From positions 1 through 64,000 of the forward strand of contig JAFSPS010000043.1 in the NCBI GenBank assembly GCA_017451385.1: a stretch of DNA of 64,000 bases, in the 5' to 3' direction. The position numbers were made by a program, and so were the translations under genes. This DNA comes from Bacteroidales bacterium (GTDB lineage: Bacteria > Bacteroidota > Bacteroidia > Bacteroidales > P3). The notes beneath the pieces were generated by a model. It had not been told where the DNA came from. It made no database searches and worked only from the letters and a program-made list of their open reading frames with translations. Below, in pieces: positions 1-12,658 of this stretch. How positions within the stretch are numbered: the first letter of the stretch is position 1; the number at the start of each line of letters is the position of its first letter.

Positions 1-418
1 AGCCATGCTTTTATCTCTCCCCTTGCATAGTCGAACATACGGCTCACCTGGCTTGTGCTATACTCCCTCCCATATATCCTCTCGAATAGCGTGCCCACCT
101 GTCGCGTCGTCAGCCCTGCCCCGTATAGCTCGAATGCTATCTCGCGCGCCTCTTCCTCCTGTTGCTTCAGTATCCCCAATATCAGCGGATAAAACGCTCC
201 TCCACGTACCCTCGGTACCCGAACTCGAATACCTTCCCACATCCGTACACCTTGCGTGGCCGGTATCCATTCCGATACAATTCTGTCTGTTTTATATACT
301 CTTCCTGCTCGGCACGCATCATTATTTCCATGCTGGCCTTGATTAATTCCTCGAACCCGTTATCTTTTTTTAACTGGTCTCTAAGAATTTCGTACTTTTG
401 CGTCTGTGTAAAGTCCAT
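1..418 (-). pseudogene. IS256-family transposase, N-terminal part, frameshifted
   Basis: Reading begins at the minus-strand ATG at 418 (MDFTQTQKYEIL...), with an alternative ATG at 448. The reading frame gives a helical N-terminus followed by NGYRPRKVYGCGKVFEF, then stops soon after. The expected continuation VPRVRGGAFYPLILGIL, then GLTTRQVGTLFERIYGREYS and SQVSRMFDYARGEI, is present in the next frame up to position 1. Loss of one base near 217-222, in what would be the arginine codon before VPR, explains the break. The match to the Mutator-type transposase family rests on this conserved N-terminal pattern. The DDE catalytic part is outside the window. I infer a degenerate copy, but a sequencing error of one base in a short C/G run is also possible. 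Confidence 0.8.
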
Positions 419-467
419 TTTTTTTATTTTTTTTTTTTCACTTTGCAAAACTACTGAAAGTTTTGCT

Positions 468-497
468 GGACTTTACACACTTTTTTAGGACAGTATC
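468..497. repeat. Terminal inverted repeat of the IS256-family element
   Basis: About 30 bp form the outer end of the element. On the minus strand it reads GATACTGTCCTAAAAAAG followed by TGTGTAAAGTCC, pointing into the transposase gene. Only this copy is visible, so the exact outer boundary is approximate. Confidence 0.7.
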
Positions 498-522
498 GGA
501 GTAGTAATGTAATAACGCTTAT

Positions 523-571
523 GATAGCACAACCGGCAGCCAAGTAGTATGTGGCTGCCGGTTGTGCTATC
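523..571 (-). terminator. Perfect 20-bp palindrome after the RyR channel gene
   Basis: Arms 523-542 and 552-571 (GATAGCACAACCGGCAGCCA and its exact complement) enclose a 9-nt loop. The hairpin sits 49 bp past the stop of the channel gene and 26 bp from the IS end, so it probably ends the minus-strand transcript. There is no U-tract on either side, so it is not a textbook intrinsic terminator. It could act as a 3' stabilising structure instead. Confidence 0.55.
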
Positions 572-619
572 TATCTTGCTCTTTTCCCGTTATTATCTCA
601 CAAAATGAGATGGCGTGGG

Positions 620-2800
620 CTATTCTGATGTCGCTTCGGCTATCTCGTCGGATTTGGTTATTATCCAAGGGATGTAGCGGCTAATCTCGTAGTCGTAGAG
701 TTTTGCGTCTTTCCCCAATTTGTCGAAGGGGCGTATGTCGTGGTGGATGAATAATTTTTTGTTGTTTTTTAGTTTCTTGGAGTGTTGTTCGTCGTGTTCG
801 TACTTGTCCTCTTTGGGGCGAGCTTTGCGGTAGCCCATGAGTAGTTTTTCCACGTTCCAGCGGTTGTGCTCCATTATGGCGAGTGTCTCTTTCTCGTTGT
901 CGGTCAGGGGTGCGTTGTCGTGACTCATGTCGTCGGGTGCGAGGTGCCGCATCTGTCGTAGTGTGGCGAGTTTGCATGGTATGCTGTAGGCGCAGTAGTA
1001 GTTGGACCAGCGATGGGCAACGGGTATCTCGTTCCATCTTTCCTCTGCTGCTTTCAGCAGTTCGGCAGGCAGCATGGTGTTAAATATCGCTATGTCTTTG
1101 AAGCCTTTTTCGTCGCAGGTAGAGTAGAGGTAGTTGATGAGTTTGGCACGTATCATGGCTTTTTCATCGATGAAGAAAGAGGTATTGTCCATGCCGAAGG
1201 GGTAGATGTTGGCGTAGCGGTGTTTGCGCTCTTGAGTCTGTAGGTTGCCTTCGTCATCTATGTAGGCGTAGGTATTTATTTGTTCGTCATCGGTCTTTTG
1301 CAGGTTGGCGACGAAGTTGTCGGAGCGTTGCTGACGAATGAAGATGGGGATAGCATTGTCGTAAACGGCATCGGGCATATTCATCCCCATGACGAAATTC
1401 ATGCGTTGGTTGCTCATGGCGAGGAAGATAGAGAGATGCTGAGAGTCGTCTTTAGCCCATTCGGCAATGAGTTCTTGCACGGGAGCAGAGAGAATGTCGC
1501 CACGAATGAACTCAAAATCTATGTCGAGGAAGTTGCCCTCCTTGCCAAATATTTGTTTTGGAGTGGATGTGGGGTGCATGCTGCTGTCGGGGGAGAGGTC
1601 GCGGTAAGCCATATCCTGCACTTCGAAGAAGTGACGGTTGCGGGTGGCAAACTCGTCTTTCTCGTGGTCGGCGTTGAGTTCGATGAAGGTAATGCGTGTA
1701 CGTATGCCGTGGGTGTAGAAATTGGGGAAATGCAGTATGTGTGCTGCTTCTATGGCGAGGCTCACGGCGAAGGAGGTGGTGCCGACAAATACAAGATGCA
1801 CCTGCTTCTTGCTGTCGGGGCCTATCCCGTCGCCATAGATGGAAGGGTAACGGTTTAATCCTCCAGATGTTTTGTGCCCCTTATACTGTCGGAGATAGAA
1901 TATCTGCTGAGCCCATGCGGAATAGACGTTGTAGGGCATGAACTCGATGCCTAATTTGTGTATCTGGTTGAATATCTCGCTGGTTTTGAACGCCGCATAT
2001 GTGTCGATGTTGTCAAAGACACAGGTGATGCGCTGCGGCAATGTGGTGTCGGCGTAGTCTTGAAGGTAGGAGCAGATGCTGTCGATACATTCGATGTTGG
2101 TTGCATCATGTGCCGGCAGAGAGCGCTTGCCGACGATGAATATTTCGCGTGCTTGATGCAGATAGATGTCGGGATAGGTGTCGGACGAGGTGCGGTGGCC
2201 GTGGTTGATGATGATGTGGTCGAGATGCTTGGAGACGATAGATTTCTCAAGATAACTGTGCAATGTCTGTTTATCGACAGAGGAGAGCAGCAGAACGTAT
2301 GCGTCGTGGTCTTTCGAGAAGATGTGGTCCATGATGGATGGCACCATCTCGTCGTAACCCATGATGATGTAGTGTCCCGACTTGAGATAGTGGATGAGCC
2401 CTTTGCGGTGGTCGTCGATGCGTCGATTCATGGTGCTGACAATCACGCCGATGATGGCGCCGTTGAACACTATCACGCCAAGGACGTAGATGATAATGCT
2501 GGCGGTGAGCATCCATCCGCGGCCGTGGGCATCGAAGTAGAGATTGTTGAGCGCGTTGGAGTCAATGAGCAGGTAGAGAGGGAGCAAGAAAGGCGTGGTG
2601 TTTTTGTTTTTGCAAAACTCGTTCAAATCGTCGTTGACAGAGAGCGATATGAGCAGAAGCGAAAGCCCGTAAAGCACTATTAGGGTAATGAGGAGAATGG
2701 CAATCTGGCGCAGAAGGCTGCGAGAGAGTGCGCGGTCCAGCCATAGCACAAGGCGTTTATGTTGTTTGCTGTTGCTCATAGTATTGTGATTATGTGTCAA
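620..2800 (-). CDS. Two-helix RCK-like channel protein with C-terminal RyR domain
   Basis: The 726-residue protein has two hydrophobic helices (about 31-54 and 98-123) with a short polar loop between them, as in minimal cation-channel pore modules. A large cytoplasmic part follows, with two beta-alpha-beta segments resembling RCK/TrkA-N nucleotide-binding folds (starting near 142, HYIIMGYDEMV, and near 333, VHLVFVGTTSFAV). At the C-terminus (about 635-715) lies an RyR domain, marked by EHNRWNVEKLLMGYRKARP and later IRPFDKLGKDAKLYDYEI. This layout recalls CASTOR/POLLUX-type and prokaryotic ligand-gated RCK channels; RyR domains are thought to bind small ligands. Neither Rossmann-like segment has a clean GxGxxG, so the ligand is unknown. 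It is the third gene of a cassette after two minus-strand partners (44-bp gap). The start could also be the internal Met at 2779. Channel function is inferred, not shown. Confidence 0.7.
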   Translation of the reverse strand: MTHNHNTMSNSKQHKRLVLWLDRALSRSLLRQIAILLITLIVLYGLSLLLISLSVNDDLNEFCKNKNTTPFLLPLYLLIDSNALNNLYFDAHGRGWMLTASIIIYVLGVIVFNGAIIGVIVSTMNRRIDDHRKGLIHYLKSGHYIIMGYDEMVPSIMDHIFSKDHDAYVLLLSSVDKQTLHSYLEKSIVSKHLDHIIINHGHRTSSDTYPDIYLHQAREIFIVGKRSLPAHDATNIECIDSICSYLQDYADTTLPQRITCVFDNIDTYAAFKTSEIFNQIHKLGIEFMPYNVYSAWAQQIFYLRQYKGHKTSGGLNRYPSIYGDGIGPDSKKQVHLVFVGTTSFAVSLAIEAAHILHFPNFYTHGIRTRITFIELNADHEKDEFATRNRHFFEVQDMAYRDLSPDSSMHPTSTPKQIFGKEGNFLDIDFEFIRGDILSAPVQELIAEWAKDDSQHLSIFLAMSNQRMNFVMGMNMPDAVYDNAIPIFIRQQRSDNFVANLQKTDDEQINTYAYIDDEGNLQTQERKHRYANIYPFGMDNTSFFIDEKAMIRAKLINYLYSTCDEKGFKDIAIFNTMLPAELLKAAEERWNEIPVAHRWSNYYCAYSIPCKLATLRQMRHLAPDDMSHDNAPLTDNEKETLAIMEHNRWNVEKLLMGYRKARPKEDKYEHDEQHSKKLKNNKKLFIHHDIRPFDKLGKDAKLYDYEISRYIPWIITKSDEIAEATSE

Positions 2801-2844
2801 AAGAGATTAGCTCAAAAACAATATCCTATTTAGTATAGGCATTT

Positions 2845-3336
2845 TCAATCCGCTCTTACTTGTTCGTGATTATCATTGTGGTGTGTTTCGTTGCTTCTGT
2901 TGACATCATTAGGGACGGGAATACCGAAACACTTTTTTTCGTAGTCTATCATATCCATGAGTTGTGATTTGTATTCGGAAGCCGTAGTCGCTTGCTCTTT
3001 TTGTTCTTTTTCGTATTCTAGCAGTTTGTTGCAGAGTTCGATGTATTGATTGTAGTGTTTATGTAGCAAATCTGATTCGTTTTTCTTTCGGTTTTTGTAA
3101 TTCTCGCATATTCGATTGTATATGTTCAATAGCAGTATGCATACGGCAGCGATGAGTACAATCAGTACGATGGTATCACAAATTATCTTGGTTGATTCGG
3201 AACCATTGGTTGTTGCGTTTTGAGCCGTCTGTAGTAACTCGGAATTGCAGAGTACGGGAATGGTGTCCTTAAATGTGTAAAGAATAGCGTATTTTTCCAT
3301 TGTTATTAGATTTATAAATTCGATAATTTTTGTCAA
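2845..3336 (-). CDS. Small one-helix membrane protein of the RyR cassette
   Basis: I do not recognise a family. The 163-residue product (or 151 residues from the internal Met at 3300, MEKYAILYTF) has a short N-terminal stretch and one strong membrane helix near 52-73 (IVLIVLIAAVCILLLNIY). A lysine/glutamate-rich segment likely to form a coiled coil follows (about 78-135), and the tail is polar and rich in Asn and His. The sequence looks more AT-rich than the neighbouring housekeeping genes. It lies between the two RyR-domain genes with an 18-bp gap from the upstream one, so it is probably co-transcribed. An accessory or scaffolding subunit of the channel is a guess from context only. Confidence 0.6.
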   Translation of the reverse strand: MTKIIEFINLITMEKYAILYTFKDTIPVLCNSELLQTAQNATTNGSESTKIICDTIVLIVLIAAVCILLLNIYNRICENYKNRKKNESDLLHKHYNQYIELCNKLLEYEKEQKEQATTASEYKSQLMDMIDYEKKCFGIPVPNDVNRSNETHHNDNHEQVRAD

Positions 3337-3354
3337 TTCACGATACGCTTTTCG

Positions 3355-4248
3355 TTACCTGCTAATTTTGAAACCGAGTTTCAGTATAAGTTTTAGGACT
3401 TCGATGCTGGTGTTGCGGTCGTAGGTCTTTTCGTCTTCTGGCAGTTGGTTGTAAGCAATGAGGCAGGGGTGCAGTTTGCGTGCGTCGTCACGTTCGGTGC
3501 CATAGCTCCATCCTTGGCTGATGCGTGTGGCAGCCCATACCTCGTGGGTGTTCTCAGCCATCTGCTCTACCAGTTGCATCAGTTCGTCGGATAGATGTAT
3601 GTCGCTGGTGTCAATGGGATGCGGCGTATAGGTGGTGTCGTTATCGATGGTAGCCGTAGTCTGTATGTCGAGGTTGGATATGTGCTCTTGCAGGTTGTTA
3701 AGATAAGACAGCGTGCGCTCCTTTATCAGACGCTTACATGCCCACACGGTGTTGTCCATCAGTGCGTGATGAAAGGCTATGATGTCGGCTTTGTTGTTGT
3801 TCAGGAGGCGTTCTATGAGGGTGCGTCGTTTGGCTTCCTCAAAAAGGCGTTGCAGGCGTTGTTGGTCAATATAGGTGTCCGAGTAGGCATTGACCCATTT
3901 CTCTACAAGGGTTATGGCTGTGCGTATGCTCTCGAGGAGTGGCGAGTGCATGTCGGGCGTGAAGTTGTTGTTCTCGCTTTTGTATATCTCGTTCAGGATG
4001 GCATGGGTCAGGTTGTCGTTGTAGAGTGTGTCGGCCATGACGGAGAAGTCATTGACGACTTTTTCTTTTAGTTCGAAGTTAAGCTCGTCGGGGATAGTCT
4101 CGCAGTCGCGTGAGATATTGTTGAAATAGTCAATGTCGATATCGAGTGTTTTGCGTAGCATCTGGTTGTAGGGAGACTGCTCGTCGTTGACCACGAGGTC
4201 CATAATGATATTGTAGAATTTCTCTTTGAGGTTGTCAATATTTGTCAT
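3355..4248 (-). CDS. Soluble RyR-domain protein
   Basis: The 297-residue protein has no signal peptide or membrane helix. The first 215 residues are acidic and alpha-helical and match no family I know. Residues about 222-294 form a classical RyR domain: AENTHEVWAATRISQGWSYG, then TERDDARKLHPCL, LPEDEKTYDRNTS and VLKLILKLGF. This follows the W-x(n)-GW-YG / HP-L-PY / YDRNT pattern of ryanodine-receptor repeats and their bacterial homologues. It starts 6 bp after the stop of the C25 peptidase gene and 18 bp before the small membrane-protein gene, so read-through transcription is likely. Because the channel protein downstream also ends in an RyR domain, the two may sense the same ligand. That functional link is inference. 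Confidence 0.78.
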   Translation of the reverse strand: MTNIDNLKEKFYNIIMDLVVNDEQSPYNQMLRKTLDIDIDYFNNISRDCETIPDELNFELKEKVVNDFSVMADTLYNDNLTHAILNEIYKSENNNFTPDMHSPLLESIRTAITLVEKWVNAYSDTYIDQQRLQRLFEEAKRRTLIERLLNNNKADIIAFHHALMDNTVWACKRLIKERTLSYLNNLQEHISNLDIQTTATIDNDTTYTPHPIDTSDIHLSDELMQLVEQMAENTHEVWAATRISQGWSYGTERDDARKLHPCLIAYNQLPEDEKTYDRNTSIEVLKLILKLGFKISR

Positions 4249-4254
4249 AGGTGA

Positions 4255-7200
4255 TTACTGTTTTGTTATTTTATGTATCGAGGTATATGCAGGAGAGGAG
4301 AGGTGTAAGAGGTAAAGCCCGTTGGGCAGGTGGGCGAGGTTGAGACTGTGTGAGTTGAAACTGTCGTGGATGGTTTGGGTGATGAGCGTGCGGCCATAGA
4401 GGTCGGTTAGCGTCATGGCGGTGAGGTTGTCTGCCACGATGGTGACGGACGATGTGGTGGGGTTGGGGTAGATGGAGGGAGCAGATGACGTGATGCCGTC
4501 TATGGAGAGCGGGCGAATGCCTATGGTGATGGAGGCTGTGTCGGTGCAGGAGGCGAGGAAGCCTATGACGGTGTAGGTGGTGGTGTCGGTAGGAGCCACT
4601 TCGATGGTGGCGGAGGTTTGACCGGTGTTCCAGAGGTAGGTGCTGGCGCCGCGAGCGGTGATGAAGGTGGACTGTCCGGGGAGCACGCTGGTGTCGGTAG
4701 ATACTATGTGCAGCGAGGGGTGTGGCAGGATGAGGAGGGAGGTGTGATAGGCGGTGTCGTTGCTCGTGAAGGAGAGGTGGAGGTAGCCTGTGGTGTCGGT
4801 GTTGATGGACTGGTCGTAGAACGAGTATTCGCTACCCTGACAGATGGTGTCGATGGTGTGGATGGTGGTCTGGGAGGATGTGTCGGGCAGGAATAGTGCG
4901 TCAATCCAAACACAGTCGTCCACGGTGGCGTAGGCATCGTCTTTAGAGTAGGTGAACGTGATGACATGGAAGCCGGCAGCTACGGGGAGTGCGGCACGAT
5001 GCCACTGAGGGTCTATGCCGCTGGCGGTGAGTAGCGTGTTACCGTCGATGGAGACAATCAGCTTGTCGATGCCGCGCTCGCTGGCGGTGCGGTAGAAGAA
5101 TGTCACGCTGTCGTTGTTCTTGGCTTCGAAAGGCAGGGTGAGGGTCGATTTGCTTGAGTTGGGCAGGTTGGGGTAGGAGCGTGCACAGCGGTCACCGTGG
5201 TAGGATAAGGTGTCGATGACGACCCACGGGTAGGAGGTGCTGTTCTGCCAGTTGAGAGCGGAGAAGTCGCCACTCTCGAAGTCGTCGCTGTAGATTGGTA
5301 TGGTCAGCGGGATGCTTTGTATCTCTTCGCCCTGCTGGAGGATGACCAGTTGAAGTGGCAGCTCTCTGAGCAAGTGTGCCTCGCTGTTTATAGTGAGGCG
5401 GTAGTGGACCTCGATAGTTTCATTTTGCCGTAGGATGTTTACGGCTATCGGGGGCTCTGTAGCCACAGCGAGGTCGTAGGGCTGGCGTATAGCGCAGGAG
5501 AAGTTTTGAGCGTCGGCATGGCCGATGTTGGCGAGCGTGAGGTCTATTTCGAGCCCGTTTCCGGGCTTAACAATGCCGTGGACTATGTGGTTTTTTATGC
5601 TAAAGCGCGGTGCGTTGACGGTCATTCGGATGGTGCAAGAGGAGACAATGGTGTCGGCGATGAACTGCATGGTGAGTGGCACAATGGTCTGGTCGGGTAT
5701 GGTGGAGGCAAGGATGCTGTGGCAGCGATGCTCTATGTGTGCTGCGGTGTGTGGTGCGATGCTGTCAATATACTCGTTAGGTCTGAGTGGCTCTATATGG
5801 AGCGGATTGCCTCGCAAGGTGTAGTTGACATTGCGTAGGGTGTTGTCGGAGAGGTTGTGGAGAGAGAAGGAGAAATCGACGGTGTCGCCAGCTATGGCAT
5901 TGTTTATGCGTAGGTTGGTGACGCTCATTTGTAGGTTGGTGTCGAAAGATAGCTCTATGGAGCCGAAGGCGGTGATGCGGTTTTGTGCAGAAGCCACGAT
6001 GTTGATGATAGTGTCGGCCACTGTCGGGTCGTTGGAGAGGACTGCATGGCCGTCGGCATCGGCAAAGGCTGCAGATATGACGCGCGAGCCATCGGCTGTG
6101 GTGATGGCTATATAGGCGTAGGGCTCTGTGGTTACGGCAATAGATTCGGCGTTGCGGCTGATGGGTTGCTGATAGTCGAGCGTCATCTGGCGTGGGCGTC
6201 CGAGCCAGGGCGACAGAGATGGGTCGCCCAAGAGGTTGTAGATTTCCCAGTAGTAGTCGGCGTATTCTGCATATTCGATGTCTTCGCTCACTGCCATGTT
6301 GCCGGCATGAATCATGGCGCCCATAGTGGTATAGCGTTCGGCAAAGGGTTCGTTGGCGGTGTGGAAGAGTCGGTCGTACATGCCGAGGTGGTCGGCATCA
6401 TATACGGCGCCGTCGGCGAACATGTCGTAGTACACAAACTCGCGGAAGCCTACGCACCAGAAGAAATCGTCATCCCAATAGGTGTCGTTGGTAGCACCTA
6501 TGTAGGCTACGGCTCCCGCGTTGTCGCTACGACGCATGAGTGCTTCGCCAAGGCATACATCGGTGTTGAAGTGGTTGGAGAGGCAGCAGTTGCCTATCAT
6601 GATGCTTGGCATGCCGTAGTTTGTCATAGTGGCGGCATTATTGACTTTGAAACTGGGATTGCTCCAACCATTGGTGAGTCCGTGCCCTGAGTAGTTGATG
6701 ATGCCTTGTCCCTCGTTGTAGAGTGATTGCAGTTCGCCAGCGGCGGCGTTGTTGGTAGAGAGGCCTGTGATGGTTATAGACGGGGGGAAGCTGTTGTTGT
6801 TGTAACGGTAGTAGGAGAGGTTGCTGAATCCGTTGGCGGTGGTGTAGTAGCGAGCGGCGGCATAGTCCATGGCGGGGTTACAGTATCGGCTGCTAAATTC
6901 GTCGTCCACGCCGGCAATGACGGTGGCGCGCTGGAGGTAGCTGTCGTCGGCAAAGGCGTATTGCTCATATAGCAGTATCTTGCTGATTTGAGCCTGCAGT
7001 TCGTCGGCGTTGGTTGCCGACAGTCGTCCGTAGAGGCAGTCGGGGATGAAGTCGTCTGTCCATTCGGCGAAATAGAGGTCGGTGATGTGATTGGTGCCAA
7101 TCTCGTAGTGTCCGGTGCGACTGCTGAAGGCACTTATCTGCTCGTGGTCGCCCACGAGGAGTAGGTAGGAGGGTGCTGGTAGGGCGGCGGAGGCGTTGGT

Positions 7201-8043
7201 GTATTGGCGACGTATGTAGGCGGCAATGTCGCTGTTGGAGGTGCCAACCTCGGGGTCATCGGTATAGGCTATGTCGGTGATGAATCCCTGTCGTCGTTTC
7301 CAAGCGATGAACTCGTCAAGCTGTCCGCGGAACATGGAATGAGCAACGATGAGGTAGCGTAGTGGAGCCTGCGACTGCAGCCTTTTGGAGGGTTTGGTGA
7401 GCGGGATGAAGTGGGATGGTGCTGGCAGGACTGGCGATGCCTGCTGTGCGAGGGCAGCGGTGGCTTTGTCATCGGCGTTTATATAGTCGATTTGTATGTC
7501 TATTTTTCGTCGTACGGTGAGTTGTTGGCGTTGTGGGTTGTAGGCAACGGGATAGATGGTGAGGCGTGCGAGACGATGGCTGCGTGCGATGCCGAGTATC
7601 TCGATGTTGGCGATGCCGGCGCACAATGTGGTGTCGGCATCATAAGCTGCGTGGTCTATGAACAGCGTGAGTGGAGTGGTGTCGGTACGCCGGCGGTGGG
7701 GCTGGGAGGGTAGCAGAGGGTGGCTGATGCCGAGGTCGGCTACGGAGACGGTGATGCTGTCGGCAGTGGAGGCAGAGAGCTTGATGTTGCCACAAACGGG
7801 TATCTCTATGATGCGCGAGAAGCATGGCAGTTGCGGCAGCCCCACATTGTTGGTGTGGGATGCTGAGGGGAGCGAAAGCATGGAGTATGTGTGGCCGAGA
7901 TATTGTGTGGTTGTGGTTGTCGGCATGGGTGTGGAGAGCTGCATGACGGCTCCCCGTATGCTGTTGCGCTTCACTACAAGTTGTTGTGCCGAAGAGGCGA
8001 GCGTGATGAGTGAGAGCACGAATAGTATGAAAAGATGTCTCAT
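4255..8043 (-). CDS. Secreted gingipain-like C25 cysteine peptidase with T9SS sorting domain
   Basis: This 1262-residue protein carries a signal peptide (MRHLFILFVLSLITLASSAQ) and a gingipain-type N-terminal prodomain. The C25 peptidase domain spans about 228-630. The catalytic histidine is His454 in IINYSGHGLTNGW, and the likely nucleophile is Cys487 in IGNCCLSNHF, matching the gingipain pattern C-x-N-x-x-F. CARDB/Ig-like repeats follow, then a jelly-roll-like segment (about 920-1060). The C-terminus, IYPNPTTSSVTIVADN through GLYLLHLSS, is a type A T9SS domain, so the protein should be exported across the outer membrane and attached to the surface. Unlike PorU, it carries its own sorting domain, which argues for cargo. 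Its ATG overlaps the stop of the pseudouridine synthase gene by 4 bp. Confidence 0.88.
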   Translation of the reverse strand: MRHLFILFVLSLITLASSAQQLVVKRNSIRGAVMQLSTPMPTTTTTQYLGHTYSMLSLPSASHTNNVGLPQLPCFSRIIEIPVCGNIKLSASTADSITVSVADLGISHPLLPSQPHRRRTDTTPLTLFIDHAAYDADTTLCAGIANIEILGIARSHRLARLTIYPVAYNPQRQQLTVRRKIDIQIDYINADDKATAALAQQASPVLPAPSHFIPLTKPSKRLQSQAPLRYLIVAHSMFRGQLDEFIAWKRRQGFITDIAYTDDPEVGTSNSDIAAYIRRQYTNASAALPAPSYLLLVGDHEQISAFSSRTGHYEIGTNHITDLYFAEWTDDFIPDCLYGRLSATNADELQAQISKILLYEQYAFADDSYLQRATVIAGVDDEFSSRYCNPAMDYAAARYYTTANGFSNLSYYRYNNNSFPPSITITGLSTNNAAAGELQSLYNEGQGIINYSGHGLTNGWSNPSFKVNNAATMTNYGMPSIMIGNCCLSNHFNTDVCLGEALMRRSDNAGAVAYIGATNDTYWDDDFFWCVGFREFVYYDMFADGAVYDADHLGMYDRLFHTANEPFAERYTTMGAMIHAGNMAVSEDIEYAEYADYYWEIYNLLGDPSLSPWLGRPRQMTLDYQQPISRNAESIAVTTEPYAYIAITTADGSRVISAAFADADGHAVLSNDPTVADTIINIVASAQNRITAFGSIELSFDTNLQMSVTNLRINNAIAGDTVDFSFSLHNLSDNTLRNVNYTLRGNPLHIEPLRPNEYIDSIAPHTAAHIEHRCHSILASTIPDQTIVPLTMQFIADTIVSSCTIRMTVNAPRFSIKNHIVHGIVKPGNGLEIDLTLANIGHADAQNFSCAIRQPYDLAVATEPPIAVNILRQNETIEVHYRLTINSEAHLLRELPLQLVILQQGEEIQSIPLTIPIYSDDFESGDFSALNWQNSTSYPWVVIDTLSYHGDRCARSYPNLPNSSKSTLTLPFEAKNNDSVTFFYRTASERGIDKLIVSIDGNTLLTASGIDPQWHRAALPVAAGFHVITFTYSKDDAYATVDDCVWIDALFLPDTSSQTTIHTIDTICQGSEYSFYDQSINTDTTGYLHLSFTSNDTAYHTSLLILPHPSLHIVSTDTSVLPGQSTFITARGASTYLWNTGQTSATIEVAPTDTTTYTVIGFLASCTDTASITIGIRPLSIDGITSSAPSIYPNPTTSSVTIVADNLTAMTLTDLYGRTLITQTIHDSFNSHSLNLAHLPNGLYLLHLSSPAYTSIHKITKQ

Positions 8044-8717
8044 AGGTTGAATATTTTTGCATCATCCCACGGTGCCGTGATGGTTATTGGTTCGTGGCTT
8101 ACGGGGTGCTGAAAACTGACGGCGTGAGCGTGGAGCGAGATACTGCCATCGGGATTGGAGCGAGGGGCTCCATATTTGAGGTCGCCTCGTATGGGGCATC
8201 CTATGTACGCGAGTTGGCATCGTATCTGGTGGTGGCGGCCGGTGTGGAGGTTTATCTCTATGAGGTTGTAGCCGCCAGAGGAGGTGGCGAGCAGGCGATA
8301 GTCGAGACGTGCCTCTTTGGCATCGGGGGTGTTAGGGGCGACGACGAAGCTTTTGTTCAGTCGCTCGTTGCGCAGCAGATAGTGGCATAGGGAGCCTTCG
8401 GTGGGGTCGGGACGGTTGCGCGAGATAGCCCAATATGTTTTGTGAAAGTCGCGCTGCTTGACCATCTCATTCATTCGAGCGAGGGCTTTGCTGGTTTTGG
8501 CAAAGACGACAACGCCGCTTACAGGGCGGTCGAGACGATGGATGACGCCACAGAATACGTTGCCGGGCTTGTTGTCGCGCTGCTTGATGAAGAGCTTAAT
8601 CTCGTCGGCCATGCAGCGATCGCCGGTACGGTCGCCTTGAACAATCTGTCCTGCCCTTTTGTTGAGCACTATCAGATGGTTATCCTCGTAGAGTATTTGT
8701 TGAGCGAGGTCGTTCAT
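8040..8717 (-). CDS. RluA-family RNA pseudouridine synthase
   Basis: The 225-residue protein contains the RluA-family core and no S4 domain. The catalytic aspartate is Asp63 in HRLDRPVSGVVVFAK, within the conserved HRLDxxTSG-type motif. Further family motifs are KTYWAISRN and LHTGRHHQIRCQLAYIGCPI. It isomerises uridines in rRNA or tRNA; the exact target cannot be told from the sequence. The short form is common in Bacteroidetes. The gene overlaps the C25 peptidase start by 4 bp and follows psd by 71 bp, so it is part of the long minus-strand run. Confidence 0.9.
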   Translation of the reverse strand: MNDLAQQILYEDNHLIVLNKRAGQIVQGDRTGDRCMADEIKLFIKQRDNKPGNVFCGVIHRLDRPVSGVVVFAKTSKALARMNEMVKQRDFHKTYWAISRNRPDPTEGSLCHYLLRNERLNKSFVVAPNTPDAKEARLDYRLLATSSGGYNLIEINLHTGRHHQIRCQLAYIGCPIRGDLKYGAPRSNPDGSISLHAHAVSFQHPVSHEPITITAPWDDAKIFNL

Positions 8718-8788
8718 GGCTGCCTCCCTATGTGCATGGTGATACTTGATGAAAGGATGGATGTTGAAAACGATATAATTGGTGTGTT

Positions 8789-9475
8789 TTATTCGCTTGC
8801 CTGTTCAGCGGCAATAGGCATAATGCGTGCTATGGGGCTCACGGCGTTGCGTACGCGGTCCTGCAAGTCAACGTTTACCTCGAACGTCTTGGGAATGAAA
8901 AGGTCGATGCGCGAGCCGAATTTGATGAATCCCATTTCTTGGTTTTGTTTTACATGTTCGCCTTCGCGAGCGTAGCATACAATGCGACGAGCCATAGTGC
9001 CAGCCACTTGGCGTATGGCAATCTTCTGTCCGTCGGGCAGGCGCATGCCTACCGTAGTGCGCTCGTTGAGGTCGCTGCTCTTGGGATAGGAGGCGATGAA
9101 ATAGTTGCCGCGGTGGTATTTGGCATATTCCACAACGCCGTCGCAAGGGTAGCGGTTGACGTGCACGTCGGTGCCACTCATGAAGATGCTTATCTGCAGA
9201 CATTCTTCTTTGATATACTCTTTCTCAAAGACCTCTTCGATGGTCACTATGGTGCCGTCGGCAGGCGAGATGAGTTGCTGCTCGTCCTCGGTGAAAATGC
9301 GGCGAGGGATGCGGAAGAAGAGCGATACGGCTACCCATGCTACAAACAGGATGCATAAGAACAGGCCGTGGAAGAAGGTCCACTCTTTGATAAAGAAAAT
9401 CATGGCAGCATAGATGAGCAGGACTACTGCCAAGGAGATTAGAATAATTTTGCGTCCTTCTTTGTGGATTTTCAT
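8789..9475 (-). CDS. psd: Phosphatidylserine decarboxylase (short Psd type)
   Basis: The enzyme converts phosphatidylserine to phosphatidylethanolamine. The 228-residue proenzyme has two N-terminal membrane helices (about 10-30 and 33-52). The catalytic core follows: LISPADGTIV, MSGTDVHVNRYPCDG and MGFIKFGSRIDLFIP. Self-cleavage between Gly and Ser in FGSR should create the pyruvoyl group. The FGSR form belongs to the compact Psd type common in Bacteroidetes, which is shorter than the E. coli enzyme. It lies next to cdsA, which makes the CDP-diacylglycerol needed upstream in the same pathway. Confidence 0.93.
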   Translation of the reverse strand: MKIHKEGRKIILISLAVVLLIYAAMIFFIKEWTFFHGLFLCILFVAWVAVSLFFRIPRRIFTEDEQQLISPADGTIVTIEEVFEKEYIKEECLQISIFMSGTDVHVNRYPCDGVVEYAKYHRGNYFIASYPKSSDLNERTTVGMRLPDGQKIAIRQVAGTMARRIVCYAREGEHVKQNQEMGFIKFGSRIDLFIPKTFEVNVDLQDRVRNAVSPIARIMPIAAEQASE

Positions 9476-9582
9476 GGTTGCTATATGGTTGTTTTTCTGA
9501 AAAAATGGTTTAATAATCTGTTCCTGTGTTAGAATGTCGAGTGTTTAAGATGTAGATGAAAAAAGGTGTTTAGTTTCGGTCG

Positions 9583-10449
9583 CTATATCCTACATATAAT
9601 GCGTAAAGCCACGATGAAAGGCATGATGATGAGCAGGCTGTCGAAGCGGTCGAGAAAGCCTCCGTGTCCCGGCATGATGTTGCCGCTGTCTTTAAGACCT
9701 ACGGAACGCTTGAGCATAGATTCTACGAGGTCGCCAAGAGTACCGATAATGCTGCAAATGAGTGCTATGGCCAGCCAAAGGCTCCAATGAATCTCGGGTT
9801 CTTTGACAAAGAGGGGTCCGACGAATACGGCAACGAGACAGGCGATGACGACACCTGTTGCCGTTCCTTCCCACGTCTTGCCGGGGGAGTGGCGAGGCCA
9901 CATCTTGTGTTTGCCGTAGAGCGAGCCACCTATGTAGGCAAAAGAATCGTTAATCCACACGAGTGCAAGGATGGACATCATAAGGTTTGGCGATGTTGCA
10001 GCAGTAATAGGCATGAGACCGAGAGGCAAACCAATGTATATGGCTGGGAAGAGGGTGTAGGTTATGTCACGAATAGGCTGGTCGGACATTCTCCATAGTT
10101 GAGCGATGAGCAGTGTGGGAACGAGTAGGAATAGCAGAACGGCGTAGATGACAATAAATGTACTGTAGATATTATACTCTGTGCCATTTTTGCACATAGA
10201 TGCAAGGCTTACTACGAGGCATGTCAGTATGCTTGTGATGTAGCCTATTGTACGCATGGGCTTGGCTCCTTGCATCTCAACAATGCGGAAGAATTCAAAC
10301 GTGCCGCCAACGGTTACGAAGAGCGTAAAGGCGATGAAAAACATGGCACCTATTTCTACATCTTCAAATATCTTCGTGGCGTAGATGCAGAACACGAAAA
10401 GCGCAGCATAGACAGTGGCTGAGAGTGTGCGTATCCAAAAATTCTTCAC
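9583..10449 (-). CDS. cdsA: Phosphatidate cytidylyltransferase
   Basis: CdsA makes CDP-diacylglycerol from CTP and phosphatidic acid in the inner membrane. The 288-residue protein has about eight hydrophobic helices. It carries the family signature near the C-terminus, LKDSGNIMPGHGGFLDRFDS, preceded by SFAYIGGSLYGKHKMWPRHS and PGKTWEGTATG. The length is normal for the family. It sits between ftsH and psd, a gene order often seen in Bacteroidales. Confidence 0.95.
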   Translation of the reverse strand: MKNFWIRTLSATVYAALFVFCIYATKIFEDVEIGAMFFIAFTLFVTVGGTFEFFRIVEMQGAKPMRTIGYITSILTCLVVSLASMCKNGTEYNIYSTFIVIYAVLLFLLVPTLLIAQLWRMSDQPIRDITYTLFPAIYIGLPLGLMPITAATSPNLMMSILALVWINDSFAYIGGSLYGKHKMWPRHSPGKTWEGTATGVVIACLVAVFVGPLFVKEPEIHWSLWLAIALICSIIGTLGDLVESMLKRSVGLKDSGNIMPGHGGFLDRFDSLLIIMPFIVALRIICRI

Positions 10450-10540
10450 GATGCGTGATGGTGTTTAATGGTGATAGAAAAGTCGTTAATGTGTAACGGC
10501 GAGAGTTTCTTTTAGTGACTGACGATGTGAGGGATAGATT

Positions 10541-12658
10541 TTAGTCTTTGTTTTCTGGCGTGGCGGTGTCGTCCTCTTTGTCTGTAGCGTTTTCGCTCTC
10601 TTTGGTTGTAGCGGCGACCTCCTCTGCCTCGTCGTTGTCGCTGGCGGCCTCATCGTTGGTGTTGTCGGAGGTGTTGCTGCGGTTGAGGTCATTGCTTTGG
10701 TCGGCTTCCCACGGGCGCTGACCGAAGATGCGTTCAAGGTCTTCGCGGAAGAGTACCTCTTTCTCGTACAGTTGTGTTGCAAGTTGTTCTATTTGGTCGC
10801 GGTGTTCGGCGATGAGCGAGAGTGCACGCTGATAGGCAGATTCCACAATGCGGTGTACCTCGGCGTCAATCTTGCGGTTGGTCTCTTCGCTGAAGGGTTT
10901 GGAGAAACCATACTCGTTTTGGCCGGTGGAGTCGTAGAAACTGACGTTGCCTATTTCGGGGCTCATGCCATAGTAAGCCACCATGGCGTGAGCCATCTTG
11001 GTGGCGCGTTCGATGTCGTTGAGTGCTCCGGTGCTGATTTTGCCGTAGAAAGTCTCTTCGGCAGCGCGGCCTGCCATGAGTGATGTCATCTCGTCGTACA
11101 TCTGCTCGTAGGTGGTAATCTGTCTTTCTTCGGGCAGATACCATGCTGCTCCCAGTGCTTTGCCGCGAGGCACAATGGTTACCTTGACCAGCGGGCTTGC
11201 CCAACGCAGCAGCCAACTGACGGAAGCGTGCCCCGACTCGTGATGTGCTATGGTGTGTTTCTCGTGGTCGGTTAGCACTTTGGTGCGTTTCTCCAGTCCG
11301 CCGACGATACGGTCTATGGCATCGAGGAAGTCCTGTTTCTCGATGTTTTTCTTGTTCTTGCGTGCCGCCACGAGGGCTGCCTCGTTGCATACGTTGGCGA
11401 TGTCGGCACCAGAGAATCCGGGTGTCTGTTTTGCGAGGAAGCTGCGATTTATTTTGCCGTCGCCCTCTTTGCAAATCTTCAGCCCTTTCATGTGGACTTT
11501 GAATATGGCTTTGCGTTCTTCGATGTCGGGCAGTTCGACATAGATTTGGCGGTCGAAGCGTCCGGCGCGAAGCAGGGCTTTGTCGAGCACGTCGGCGCGG
11601 TTGGTGGCAGCCATGACGATGACGTTGGTGCCGCTGCTGAAGCCGTCCATCTCGGTGAGAAGAGCGTTGAGGGTGTTTTCGCGTTCGTCGTTGGCGTTGC
11701 TGAATCCGTTGTGGCCGCGGGCGCGTCCGACAGCGTCAATCTCATCGATGAAGATTATGCAAGGTGCTTTCTTCTTGGCATCGTCAAAGAGGTCTCGTAC
11801 ACGCGAGGCACCTACGCCGACAAACATCTCGACGAAGTCACTGCCCGAAAGCGAGAAGAAGGGCACGTTGGCTTCGCCTGCCACGGCTTTGGCGAGGAGC
11901 GTCTTGCCGGTGCCCGGAGGGCCTACGAGGAGTACACCCTTAGGAATCTTGCCGCCGAGGTCGGTGTAGCGTTTGGGGTTCTTGAGGAAGTCCACCACTT
12001 CCATCACCTCTTCTTTGGCTCCTGCCAGACCGGCGACATCCTTGAAAGTGATGTTGGTGGGTGTCTTGCCGTCATACATCTTGGCGCGGGATTTGCCTAC
12101 GCCGAAGATGCCGCCACCGCCGCCGCCCATCTGGCGTGTTGCTGAGCGGCTCATGAAGAAGAAGAAAAGAATGATGAGGACGAAGGGTCCAAAGAGTACG
12201 AGGATTTCGCGCCAAGTGTTGGAGCGTTGCTCGATGGAGTAGGTTACATGGCAGCCGGTTTCCTGCTCTATGCGGTCGAGCAGGCGGTCGAAGTGCTCGA
12301 GAGAACCCACACTGTTGAAGGTGTAGTGGCCGCGTTCTACGGCACGCTGTCCGGTGATGGTGCGCGCATAGAGCTCGCGGTAGGAGGTGTCGCGCTGCAT
12401 GCCTTTGTCGCTTATATATACTTCGGCATATTCCTCATTGACGACGATTATTTTCTCGTAGTCCTCATGCTCTATGATGGCGACAAAGCGGTCCCAGTCT
12501 ATTTCTTTGGTGTTGCTGCCGCTTCCGGAGAGGAGCAGGCTGCCCAATCCGATGACAATGACGGCATAGATAATATACATTATTATAGAGCCCTTAGACT
12601 GTGGTGAGCGTGGAGGCTGCTGTGGCTGGTTTTGGTTGTTCTGCTGTTGTTGTGGCAT
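10541..12658 (-). CDS. ftsH: ATP-dependent zinc metalloprotease FtsH
   Basis: FtsH is a membrane-bound AAA+ protease that degrades misfolded membrane proteins and short-lived regulators. The 705-residue protein has membrane helices at about 24-44 and 153-170 flanking a periplasmic domain, followed by a Gly-rich linker. Walker A is GPPGTGKT (246-253), Walker B is IIFIDEID, and the second region of homology is near [19 protein letters not shown]. The zinc site is HESGH (473-477). The C-terminal 60 residues are an acidic, Thr/Asn/Glu-rich tail. The N-terminus is Gln/Pro rich ([16 protein letters not shown]). It is preceded by rsfS and followed by cdsA. Confidence 0.97.

What the first reader, a model, noticed from the sequence alone, without database searches (positions are those of the whole stretch)
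620..4248. Three-gene RyR / RCK-channel cassette, candidate ligand-gated channel system
Seen: a soluble protein ending in a clear RyR domain (TERDDARKLHPCL, YDRNTS), a small one-helix membrane protein, and a two-helix RCK-like protein that also ends in an RyR domain, all on one strand with gaps of 18 and 44 bp. Known: RyR domains were first defined in ryanodine receptors and occur in bacteria; RCK-type domains gate channels on ligand binding. Inferred: the two RyR domains sense one ligand, and the channel opens or closes in response. Such a layout would fit a stress, signalling or abortive-infection system. I know of no described system with this trio.
Basis: partly seen in the sequence, partly recalled or inferred. 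Interest (0 to 1): 0.75.

Follow-up and report, generated by a model that had tools for sequence, protein, structure and literature searches.

The report
TIR-linked ryanodine-domain ion channel cassette
A bacterium carries a three-gene set that looks like an ion channel switched by an NAD-derived alarm signal; related bacteria often place a likely alarm-making enzyme beside it, so it may be an immune or stress switch built from the same sensor domain found in animal calcium-release channels.

Summary
The trio is real: A (3355-4248) ends in a RyR domain (PF02026, E=1e-35); B (2845-3300) has one helix; C (620-2779) has two helices, a BK-like pore region and RCK1 domain, and a divergent RyR-like C-terminus. 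Pfam does not see C alone; a profile of homologues does.

The order A>B>C was seen once more (L061), followed by TIR genes. C matches in 34 of 148 related genomes. A separate RyR gene is present in 26 of those 34 against 3 of the other 114. TIR loci lie within 5 kb of 16 of 41 C loci (19 TIR loci, 0.36 expected). In two genomes a TIR gene directly precedes a channel that holds the genome's only RyR match. The RyR pockets keep the residues with which phage RyDEP binds 2'/3'cADPR.

Most likely: a Thoeris-like system in which a TIR makes an ADP-ribose signal, RyR pockets sense it and a non-K+-type RCK channel is the effector. Ligand, ion and phage defence are inferred. Against: no TIR on this contig, which ends 620 bp beyond C; no defence-island signal; most C loci lack a nearby TIR. 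I found no printed description, but a key 2025 preprint could not be read.

The parts
3361..3630 (-). RyR domain (PF02026) of protein A, residues 207-296; H235, W238, H260, D277 have the RyDEP H75/W78/H100/D117 spacing
   Evidence: (E=3.7e-36 on DNA); RyDEP residues from PMC13232231
3631..4248 (-). N-terminal part of A (residues 1-206), no predicted membrane helix, no known family; similar N-terminus on RyR proteins in G030, G028 and G053
   Evidence: (E 9e-10, 1.4e-9, 1.3e-6)
2845..3300 (-). Gene B, 151 aa, one membrane helix (about 3130-3186) followed by a charged tail
   Evidence: weakly similar small genes directly upstream of C in L025, L032, L033, L036, L039, L061
620..2779 (-). Gene C, 719 aa: two-helix RCK channel with RyR-like C-terminus
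2441..2704 (-). Pore region of C: helix 1 (2648-2704), pore loop with D80 (LIDSNALNN, about 2531-2587), helix 2 (2441-2497)
   Evidence: aligns over the BK filter but lacks TVGYG; resembles CASTOR AD265S(A)GNHA (PMC6697748, passages)
2051..2383 (-). RCK1-type Rossmann domain of C (approximate limits)
   Evidence: Slo-like_RCK at E<=0.1 in 7 of 20 homologues
647..928 (-). RyR-like C-terminal domain of C, with H645, W648, H686, D703 (726-aa numbering)

Best explanation
The cassette is the sensor-effector half of a TIR-type nucleotide signalling system. A TIR enzyme, encoded near the channel in many relatives and not seen on this contig, is set off by a danger (infection or stress) and turns NAD+ into an ADP-ribose-type signal, perhaps 2'cADPR or 3'cADPR. 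RyR pockets in A and in the tail of C bind it. Binding moves the RCK ring of tetrameric C and opens a pore that lacks the K+ filter and may pass cations or Ca2+; ion flow then stops growth or kills the cell, as an effector in place of Thoeris ThsA. B is probably an accessory subunit. Shown: the domains, conserved pocket residues, RyR/TIR/channel linkage, and the TIR>channel-RyR arrangement of G004 and G024. Inferred: the ligand, tetramer, ion, direction of gating, B's role and the biological purpose.
For: C matches in 34 of 148 relatives (some matches are partial). A separate RyR gene is in 26 of those 34 genomes against 3 of 114 without C (Fisher p 8e-19; 7 of 40 RyR rows dropped: 6 inside 621-757-aa frames, 1 in a 36-aa frame); 21 of 41 C loci have one within 5 kb (0.18 RyR genes expected near C). 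TIR loci within 5 kb of C: 19 of 58, 0.36 expected, at 16 of 41 C loci. TIR by Pfam near C: L028, L029, L033, L041, L042, L045, L053, L054, L061, L065 and own-genome L049. Of 31 TIR rows in the fetched loci, 29 have the catalytic Glu, 1 has Gly and 1 is a fragment. In G004 and G024 a TIR gene directly precedes a channel whose tail is the only PF02026 match in the genome. In L061 the order A>B>C is followed by TIR, SIR2-TIR and nSTAND1 genes. STAND-type proteins also lie upstream of C in L025 and L078, and a DUF4062-TPR protein with a sub-threshold NACHT match in L035. H-W-H-D spacing in 19 of 24 RyR domains, HWHD in 39 of 48 C tails. RyDEP uses these residues to bind and cleave 2'/3'cADPR (PMC13232231).
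Against: No TIR is on the window's contig (one search finds the genome's two TIRs on contigs 29 and 49); the contig ends 620 bp beyond C. The own-genome TIR beside the second channel copy lacks the catalytic Glu. 25 of 41 C loci have no TIR within 5 kb. An intact C pocket does not track significantly with a RyR/TIR partner (25 of 39 against 3 of 9, p=0.14; that ORF set misses some RyR genes found). PADLOC at 1e-10 gave only E1-E2 (2 members) and IetA (1) among 96 of 132 non-TIR neighbours, and the Pfam families listed for them (first 25 of 79) are largely housekeeping or transport. One viral-contig scan confirmed no relative. The Poisson figures ignore relatedness, contig ends and gene clustering. 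No structure could be predicted.
Confidence: 0.55

Rival explanations
1. A is the off-switch, not the sensor: a host-encoded RyDEP-like glycosidase or sponge that removes the TIR signal, while the RyR-like tail of C alone senses it. This sets a threshold for a dangerous channel.
For: A keeps both RyDEP catalytic residues at the same spacing. In G004 and G024 the only PF02026 match in the genome is in the channel, so C could be the sensor by itself. RyDEP-family members hydrolyse or sequester the signal (PMC13232231).
Against: 5 of 24 RyR domains have lost the second His. A carries an unexplained N-terminal region, and other RyR genes carry N-termini that look anti-sigma-like by eye or match a C39 peptidase weakly, which fits sensors better than scavengers. 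In the paper one phage protein hydrolysed the signals; the eight homologues tested did not.
Confidence: 0.25
2. A physiological channel: C adjusts ion balance in response to NAD+/ADP-ribose-type metabolites in ordinary stress; TIR neighbours only reflect that such genes share regulated loci.
For: Largely housekeeping surroundings and no PADLOC islands; sigma-factor-like and anti-sigma-like RyR genes in L032, L033 and L066 (judged by eye), with PrsW in L032 and L033, look like transcriptional stress control; nucleotide-gated RCK channels are known (PMC6957272 and PMC3510474, abstract starts in the listing). Five 673-aa C homologues without the full pocket have no RyR or TIR partner in view.
Against: Patchy presence (34 of 148), strong TIR linkage, STAND, DUF4062 and CHAT neighbours and the TIR>channel-RyR arrangement.
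Confidence: 0.25
3. C is not an ion channel but a membrane-disrupting effector that oligomerises on ligand binding, like the macrodomain ThsA of type II Thoeris (PMC12948488, passages).
For: No recognised selectivity filter; the pore loop varies between subfamilies, with Asp at the aligned column in 24 of 48 (my count from the listing).
Against: Helix-loop-helix-RCK order aligns colinearly with BK over 230 profile positions, and a CASTOR-like D-x-G-N loop occurs in divergent members L040, L044, L049 and L079.
Confidence: 0.12

Closest known systems
Thoeris anti-phage systems (ThsB TIR + ThsA effector)
   Same: TIR gene near a protein that couples a ligand pocket for an ADP-ribose-type signal (here inferred) to an effector; TIRs of L033, L049 and L065 score near the cut-off of the Pfam ThsB_TIR model
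   Different: Sensor is a RyR domain and effector a two-helix RCK channel, instead of SLOG-SIR2 or macrodomain ThsA; RyR and small TM genes added; no defence shown
Phage RyDEP (RyR-domain defence evasion protein, PMC13232231)
   Same: RyR domain with the H, W, H, D ligand residues at identical spacing in A
   Different: RyDEP is a phage anti-defence enzyme or sponge; here the domain is host-encoded and fused or linked to a channel
BK/Slo, MthK and plant CASTOR/POLLUX/DMI1 RCK channels
   Same: Two pore helices followed by an RCK1 domain; Asp in a CASTOR-like filter position in half of the homologues compared
   Different: No TVGYG, only two helices, RyR-like tail; only RCK1 is supported by profiles
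Animal ryanodine receptors (R12 tandem repeat)
   Same: Same PF02026 domain attached to an ion channel
   Different: Different pore and far smaller; RyR repeats sit in the cytosolic periphery, here the domain is C-terminal to an RCK domain

Membership tests
PF02026 RyR domain (protein A) | Score above the curated cut-off over the full domain | tested here: met
   122.3 bits against 27.4, profile positions 1-90 of 91
PF02026 RyR domain (tail of C) | Score above the curated cut-off | tested here: not met
   No match for the window protein; 5 of 20 homologues match at E<=0.1; the G004 and G024 homologues pass; profile-profile 93.7%. Filed as RyR-like
RyDEP-type ADP-ribose ligand pocket | H75, W78, H100, D117 equivalents | tested here: met
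   A: H235, W238, H260, D277; C: H645, W648, H686, D703 by alignment, with a longer insert before the second His
RyDEP-type ADP-ribose ligand pocket | Binding or cleavage of 2'/3'cADPR | not testable with these tools
   Needs purified protein
RCK-gated two-helix channel | Helix-pore loop-helix followed by RCK domain | tested here: met
   (by profile of homologues and hydropathy)
RCK-gated two-helix channel | Tetrameric, ion-conducting | not testable with these tools
   Structure prediction failed and was then switched off
Canonical K+ channel | TVGYG-type selectivity filter | tested here: not met
   LIDSNALNN in its place
CASTOR/POLLUX/DMI1 | AD(S/A)GNHA-type filter with critical Asp | tested here: inconclusive
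   Asp at the column in 24 of 48 homologues, window included (listing); RCK match to DMI1 0.0017, CASTOR 0.015
Thoeris | TIR gene adjacent to the effector gene | tested here: inconclusive
   Met in part of the relatives; no TIR on the window's contig, which ends 620 bp beyond C
Thoeris | ThsA-type effector (SLOG-SIR2 or macrodomain) | tested here: not met
   No such domain found in A, B or C
Thoeris | Anti-phage protection | not testable with these tools
   Needs phage challenge
Defence-island gene | Known defence systems among neighbours | tested here: not met
   96 of 132 non-TIR neighbours of 17 TIR-bearing loci: only E1-E2 and IetA models at 1e-10; the window locus itself was not in this set

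The most novel reading that the evidence does not exclude
Bacteria possess a TIR-made-cADPR-gated, Ca2+- or cation-conducting RyR-RCK channel as an immune effector: the long-suspected 'cADPR opens a ryanodine-domain channel' logic exists, with a different pore, as a prokaryotic defence circuit, and host RyR genes act both as sensors and as signal erasers.
Probability: 0.3. Interest if true: 0.92.

Novelty: new variant of a known kind. Interest (0 to 1): 0.7.

Why it matters
Whether cyclic ADP-ribose acts directly on ryanodine-receptor domains is an old question in calcium signalling. Here a compact bacterial set joins a RyR pocket and a gated pore, often near a TIR enzyme that could make the ligand, so the link can be tested with a few small genes. 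It would also add a ligand-gated ion channel with a RyR sensor to the effectors of TIR-based immunity, suggest what host-encoded RyR domains do in these bacteria, and suggest what RyR domains in phages are made to counter (249 of 50,697 phage records matched A's RyR domain at E<=0.01; at least one of these is probably a bacterial contig).

Tried and rejected
Plasmid search with C: no match. PDB search with C alone: no match at E<=1; the profile was needed. Viral contig scan with the C profile: 13 pattern matches, none confirmed. PADLOC gave no system for the trio. Internal RCK duplication: not detected. Link between intact C pocket and partners: not significant. Papers: the rows listed by the searches (most lists were capped; I saw titles and abstract starts) showed no description of a TIR/RyR/RCK system. 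[quoted passage not shown]) and PMC13243611; any of these might describe it. Two 'phage' records with close RyR genes (H1, H2) were examined: H2 holds RyR overlapping a partial C (L094) and is probably bacterial; H1 has RyR without C, TIR or the other profiles in the 7.2 kb looked at. Neither was taken as phage carriage.
Full report
WHAT IS THERE. Three minus-strand genes occupy 620-4248. A (3355-4248, 297 aa, no membrane helix by hydropathy) has an unfamiliar N-terminal region and a full RyR domain at residues 207-296 (PF02026, E=1e-35). B (2845-3300, 151 aa from its ATG) has one strong hydrophobic helix and a charged tail. C (620-2779, 719 aa from its ATG) has two hydrophobic helices. C alone matches no Pfam family at E<=1 and nothing in the PDB at E<=1. 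A profile of 20 homologues matches BK channels from the first helix through RCK1 (best E=1.5e-7), RyR1 at the C-terminus (1.2e-4), DMI1 (0.0017), MthK (0.0098) and CASTOR (0.015). Among the 20 members, 7 match Slo-like_RCK and 5 match RyR at E<=0.1; 5 also match Cation_ATPase_C and 4 EI24, which I take as matches to membrane helices. Profile-profile comparison puts the C-terminus of C with the stand-alone RyR domains (93.7%, E=1.8e-7), while six other alignments gave at most 0.65%.

THE PORE. In the HMMER alignment to BK, the loop of C falls on BK's filter, but TVGYG is missing. In the window protein the loop reads LIDSNALNN. Plant CASTOR, a Ca2+-selective channel, has AD265S(A)GNHA there, and its D265N mutant gave no current (PMC6697748, passages read). 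An Asp sits at the aligned column in 24 of 48 homologues by my count of the listing, including D-P-G-N in L040, L044, L049 and L079; a partial C in L094 reads ADPGN. The other 24 lack it. A non-K+ or Ca2+-permeable pore is an inference.

THE POCKET. A 2026 preprint (PMC13232231; [quoted passage not shown] In A the same residues appear at the same spacing (H235, W238, H260, D277). Of 24 RyR domains outside C in the fetched loci, 19 keep the exact spacing; the five exceptions have another residue for the second His. C tails keep H, W, H, D in 39 of 48 (one truncated copy and the frames under 550 aa left out). Whether these host domains bind the same molecules is not tested.

DOES IT RECUR? C is found in 34 of 148 related genomes at E<=0.001, some by partial matches; 13 more loci came from named records, 9 of them labelled Prevotella or Prevotellaceae. 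PF02026 is found in 33 of 148. Of 40 RyR rows I dropped 7 (6 inside 621-757-aa frames, taken as channels, and 1 in a 36-aa frame). With the remaining 33, 26 of 34 C genomes have a separate RyR gene against 3 of 114 others, and 21 of 29 RyR genes in C genomes lie within 5 kb of C (0.18 expected). In some genomes the RyR gene and C are on different contigs (G035, G045, G053, G054), so the co-occurrence is not only adjacency, though contigs are short. B-like genes sit directly upstream of C in six other loci (L025, L032, L033, L036, L039, L061); five of these went into the model, and L061 did not (E=1.4e-4; 716 ORFs scanned). The exact order A>B>C was seen again only in L061; A-type RyR proteins also lie beside C in L062 and, without C on its 7 kb contig, in L063.

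THE TIR LINK. Neighbours of C include TIR proteins with WG, FGE or Sel1 partners or two TIR domains and one with WD40 repeats. In the 34 C genomes, 27 have a TIR; 69 TIR rows merge to 58 loci; 19 lie within 5 kb of a C locus, 0.36 expected, and 16 of 41 C loci in 15 genomes have one. Of the 13 named loci, 5 have a TIR and 5 a RyR gene in view, and 6 have neither. The expectation treats positions as random and genomes as independent, so it is only indicative. Of 31 TIR rows in the fetched loci (distances to C), 29 have the catalytic Glu. In G004 and G024 a TIR gene directly precedes the channel (15 bp apart in G024, overlapping frames in G004), the channel tail passes the Pfam RyR cut-off and is the only PF02026 match in the genome, and a 650-aa gene lies just upstream of the TIR in both. 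L061 continues after C with a 67-aa TIR piece, a SIR2-TIR protein and an nSTAND1 NTPase. An nSTAND1-LRR protein lies upstream of B and C in L025, a DUF4062-NB-ARC-TPR protein directly upstream of C in L078, a DUF4062-TPR protein with a NACHT match below cut-off upstream of RyR and C in L035, and a CHAT-TPR protein near a partial C in L069. By general knowledge such proteins are common in bacterial conflict systems.

MECHANISM. Taken together, a TIR would be triggered by a sensor part, make an ADP-ribose-type signal, and RyR pockets in A and C would read it and gate the RCK pore. The arrangement in G004 and G024 argues that C's own RyR tail can suffice. A may be a second sensor subunit or, with its intact catalytic pair, an eraser of the signal. 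I give the TIR-signal-channel reading 0.55.

RESULTS AGAINST. The window's contig carries no TIR, and window base 1 is contig base 1, so only 619 bp beyond C are seen. The own genome has two TIR genes elsewhere: one beside a second C copy on contig 29, lacking the Glu, and one running into the end of contig 49. Of 41 C loci, 25 have no TIR within 5 kb. PADLOC at 1e-10 found only E1-E2 (2 members) and IetA (1 member) models among 96 of 132 non-TIR, non-RyR neighbours of 17 TIR-bearing loci; the Pfam families listed for them (first 25 of 79) are largely housekeeping or transport. There was no matched control for that scan. One viral-contig scan confirmed no relative. Pocket integrity in C does not track significantly with partners (p=0.14). 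In a sample of 395 genomes of the phylum, 29 match the C profile and 27 match PF02026, 20 of the latter in one genus and mostly in frames of about 880-940 aa. Outside the own genome the C matches there are partial, mostly helices plus RCK1 or only the tail; G149 and G363 have the RyR match in the same frame as the C match. How far the cassette extends beyond the order is therefore open.

NOVELTY. The rows listed by eight searches showed no paper describing this combination; the most relevant preprint on new TIR systems was not held. I therefore rate it a new variant of a known kind (TIR-nucleotide signalling), with the RyR sensor and RCK channel as the new parts.

Noticed in passing
L049 (G000:C29), 3-11982: Second channel copy in the same genome: kinase-AAA gene, then a 1210-aa C homologue with FGE sequence after the RyR-like tail, then a TIR-membrane protein with a weak prokaryotic STING match (PF20300, 4e-5, below cut-off) and Gly for the catalytic Glu, then a gene with a sub-threshold TerB match; a cation P-type ATPase follows.
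   Followed up: partly
L032, L033, L066: Larger operons add a sigma-factor-like gene (by eye; no Pfam family above cut-off), RyR proteins with anti-sigma-like N-termini (by eye) and, in L032 and L033, a PrsW protease: RyR domains may also control transcription.
   Followed up: partly
window 182-448 (-): An 88-aa frame near the contig end resembles the start of an IS256-type transposase (recalled; Pfam gave no match at 1e-3); a repeat may explain the contig break.
   Followed up: partly
window 4255-8043 (-): A C25 (gingipain-type) peptidase with a Por secretion tail lies directly upstream of the trio, 6 bp from A.
   Followed up: no
L048, L073, L074, L075, L077: Five 673-aa C homologues have other residues for the second His and Asp of the pocket and no RyR or TIR neighbour in view; perhaps a channel with another trigger.
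   Followed up: partly
L094 (MT836850.1), 5980-7427: A record filed as a faecal bacteriophage holds a RyR gene overlapping a C homologue with an ADPGN loop; probably a bacterial contig.
   Followed up: partly
genus g118 genomes: Proteins of about 880-940 aa with two RyR matches in tandem recur in one genus of the phylum; several also match the tail of the C profile.
   Followed up: no
L064 6627-8579, L065 5782-7734: A 650-aa gene lies just upstream of the TIR>channel-RyR pair in both G004 and G024; not identified.
   Followed up: no
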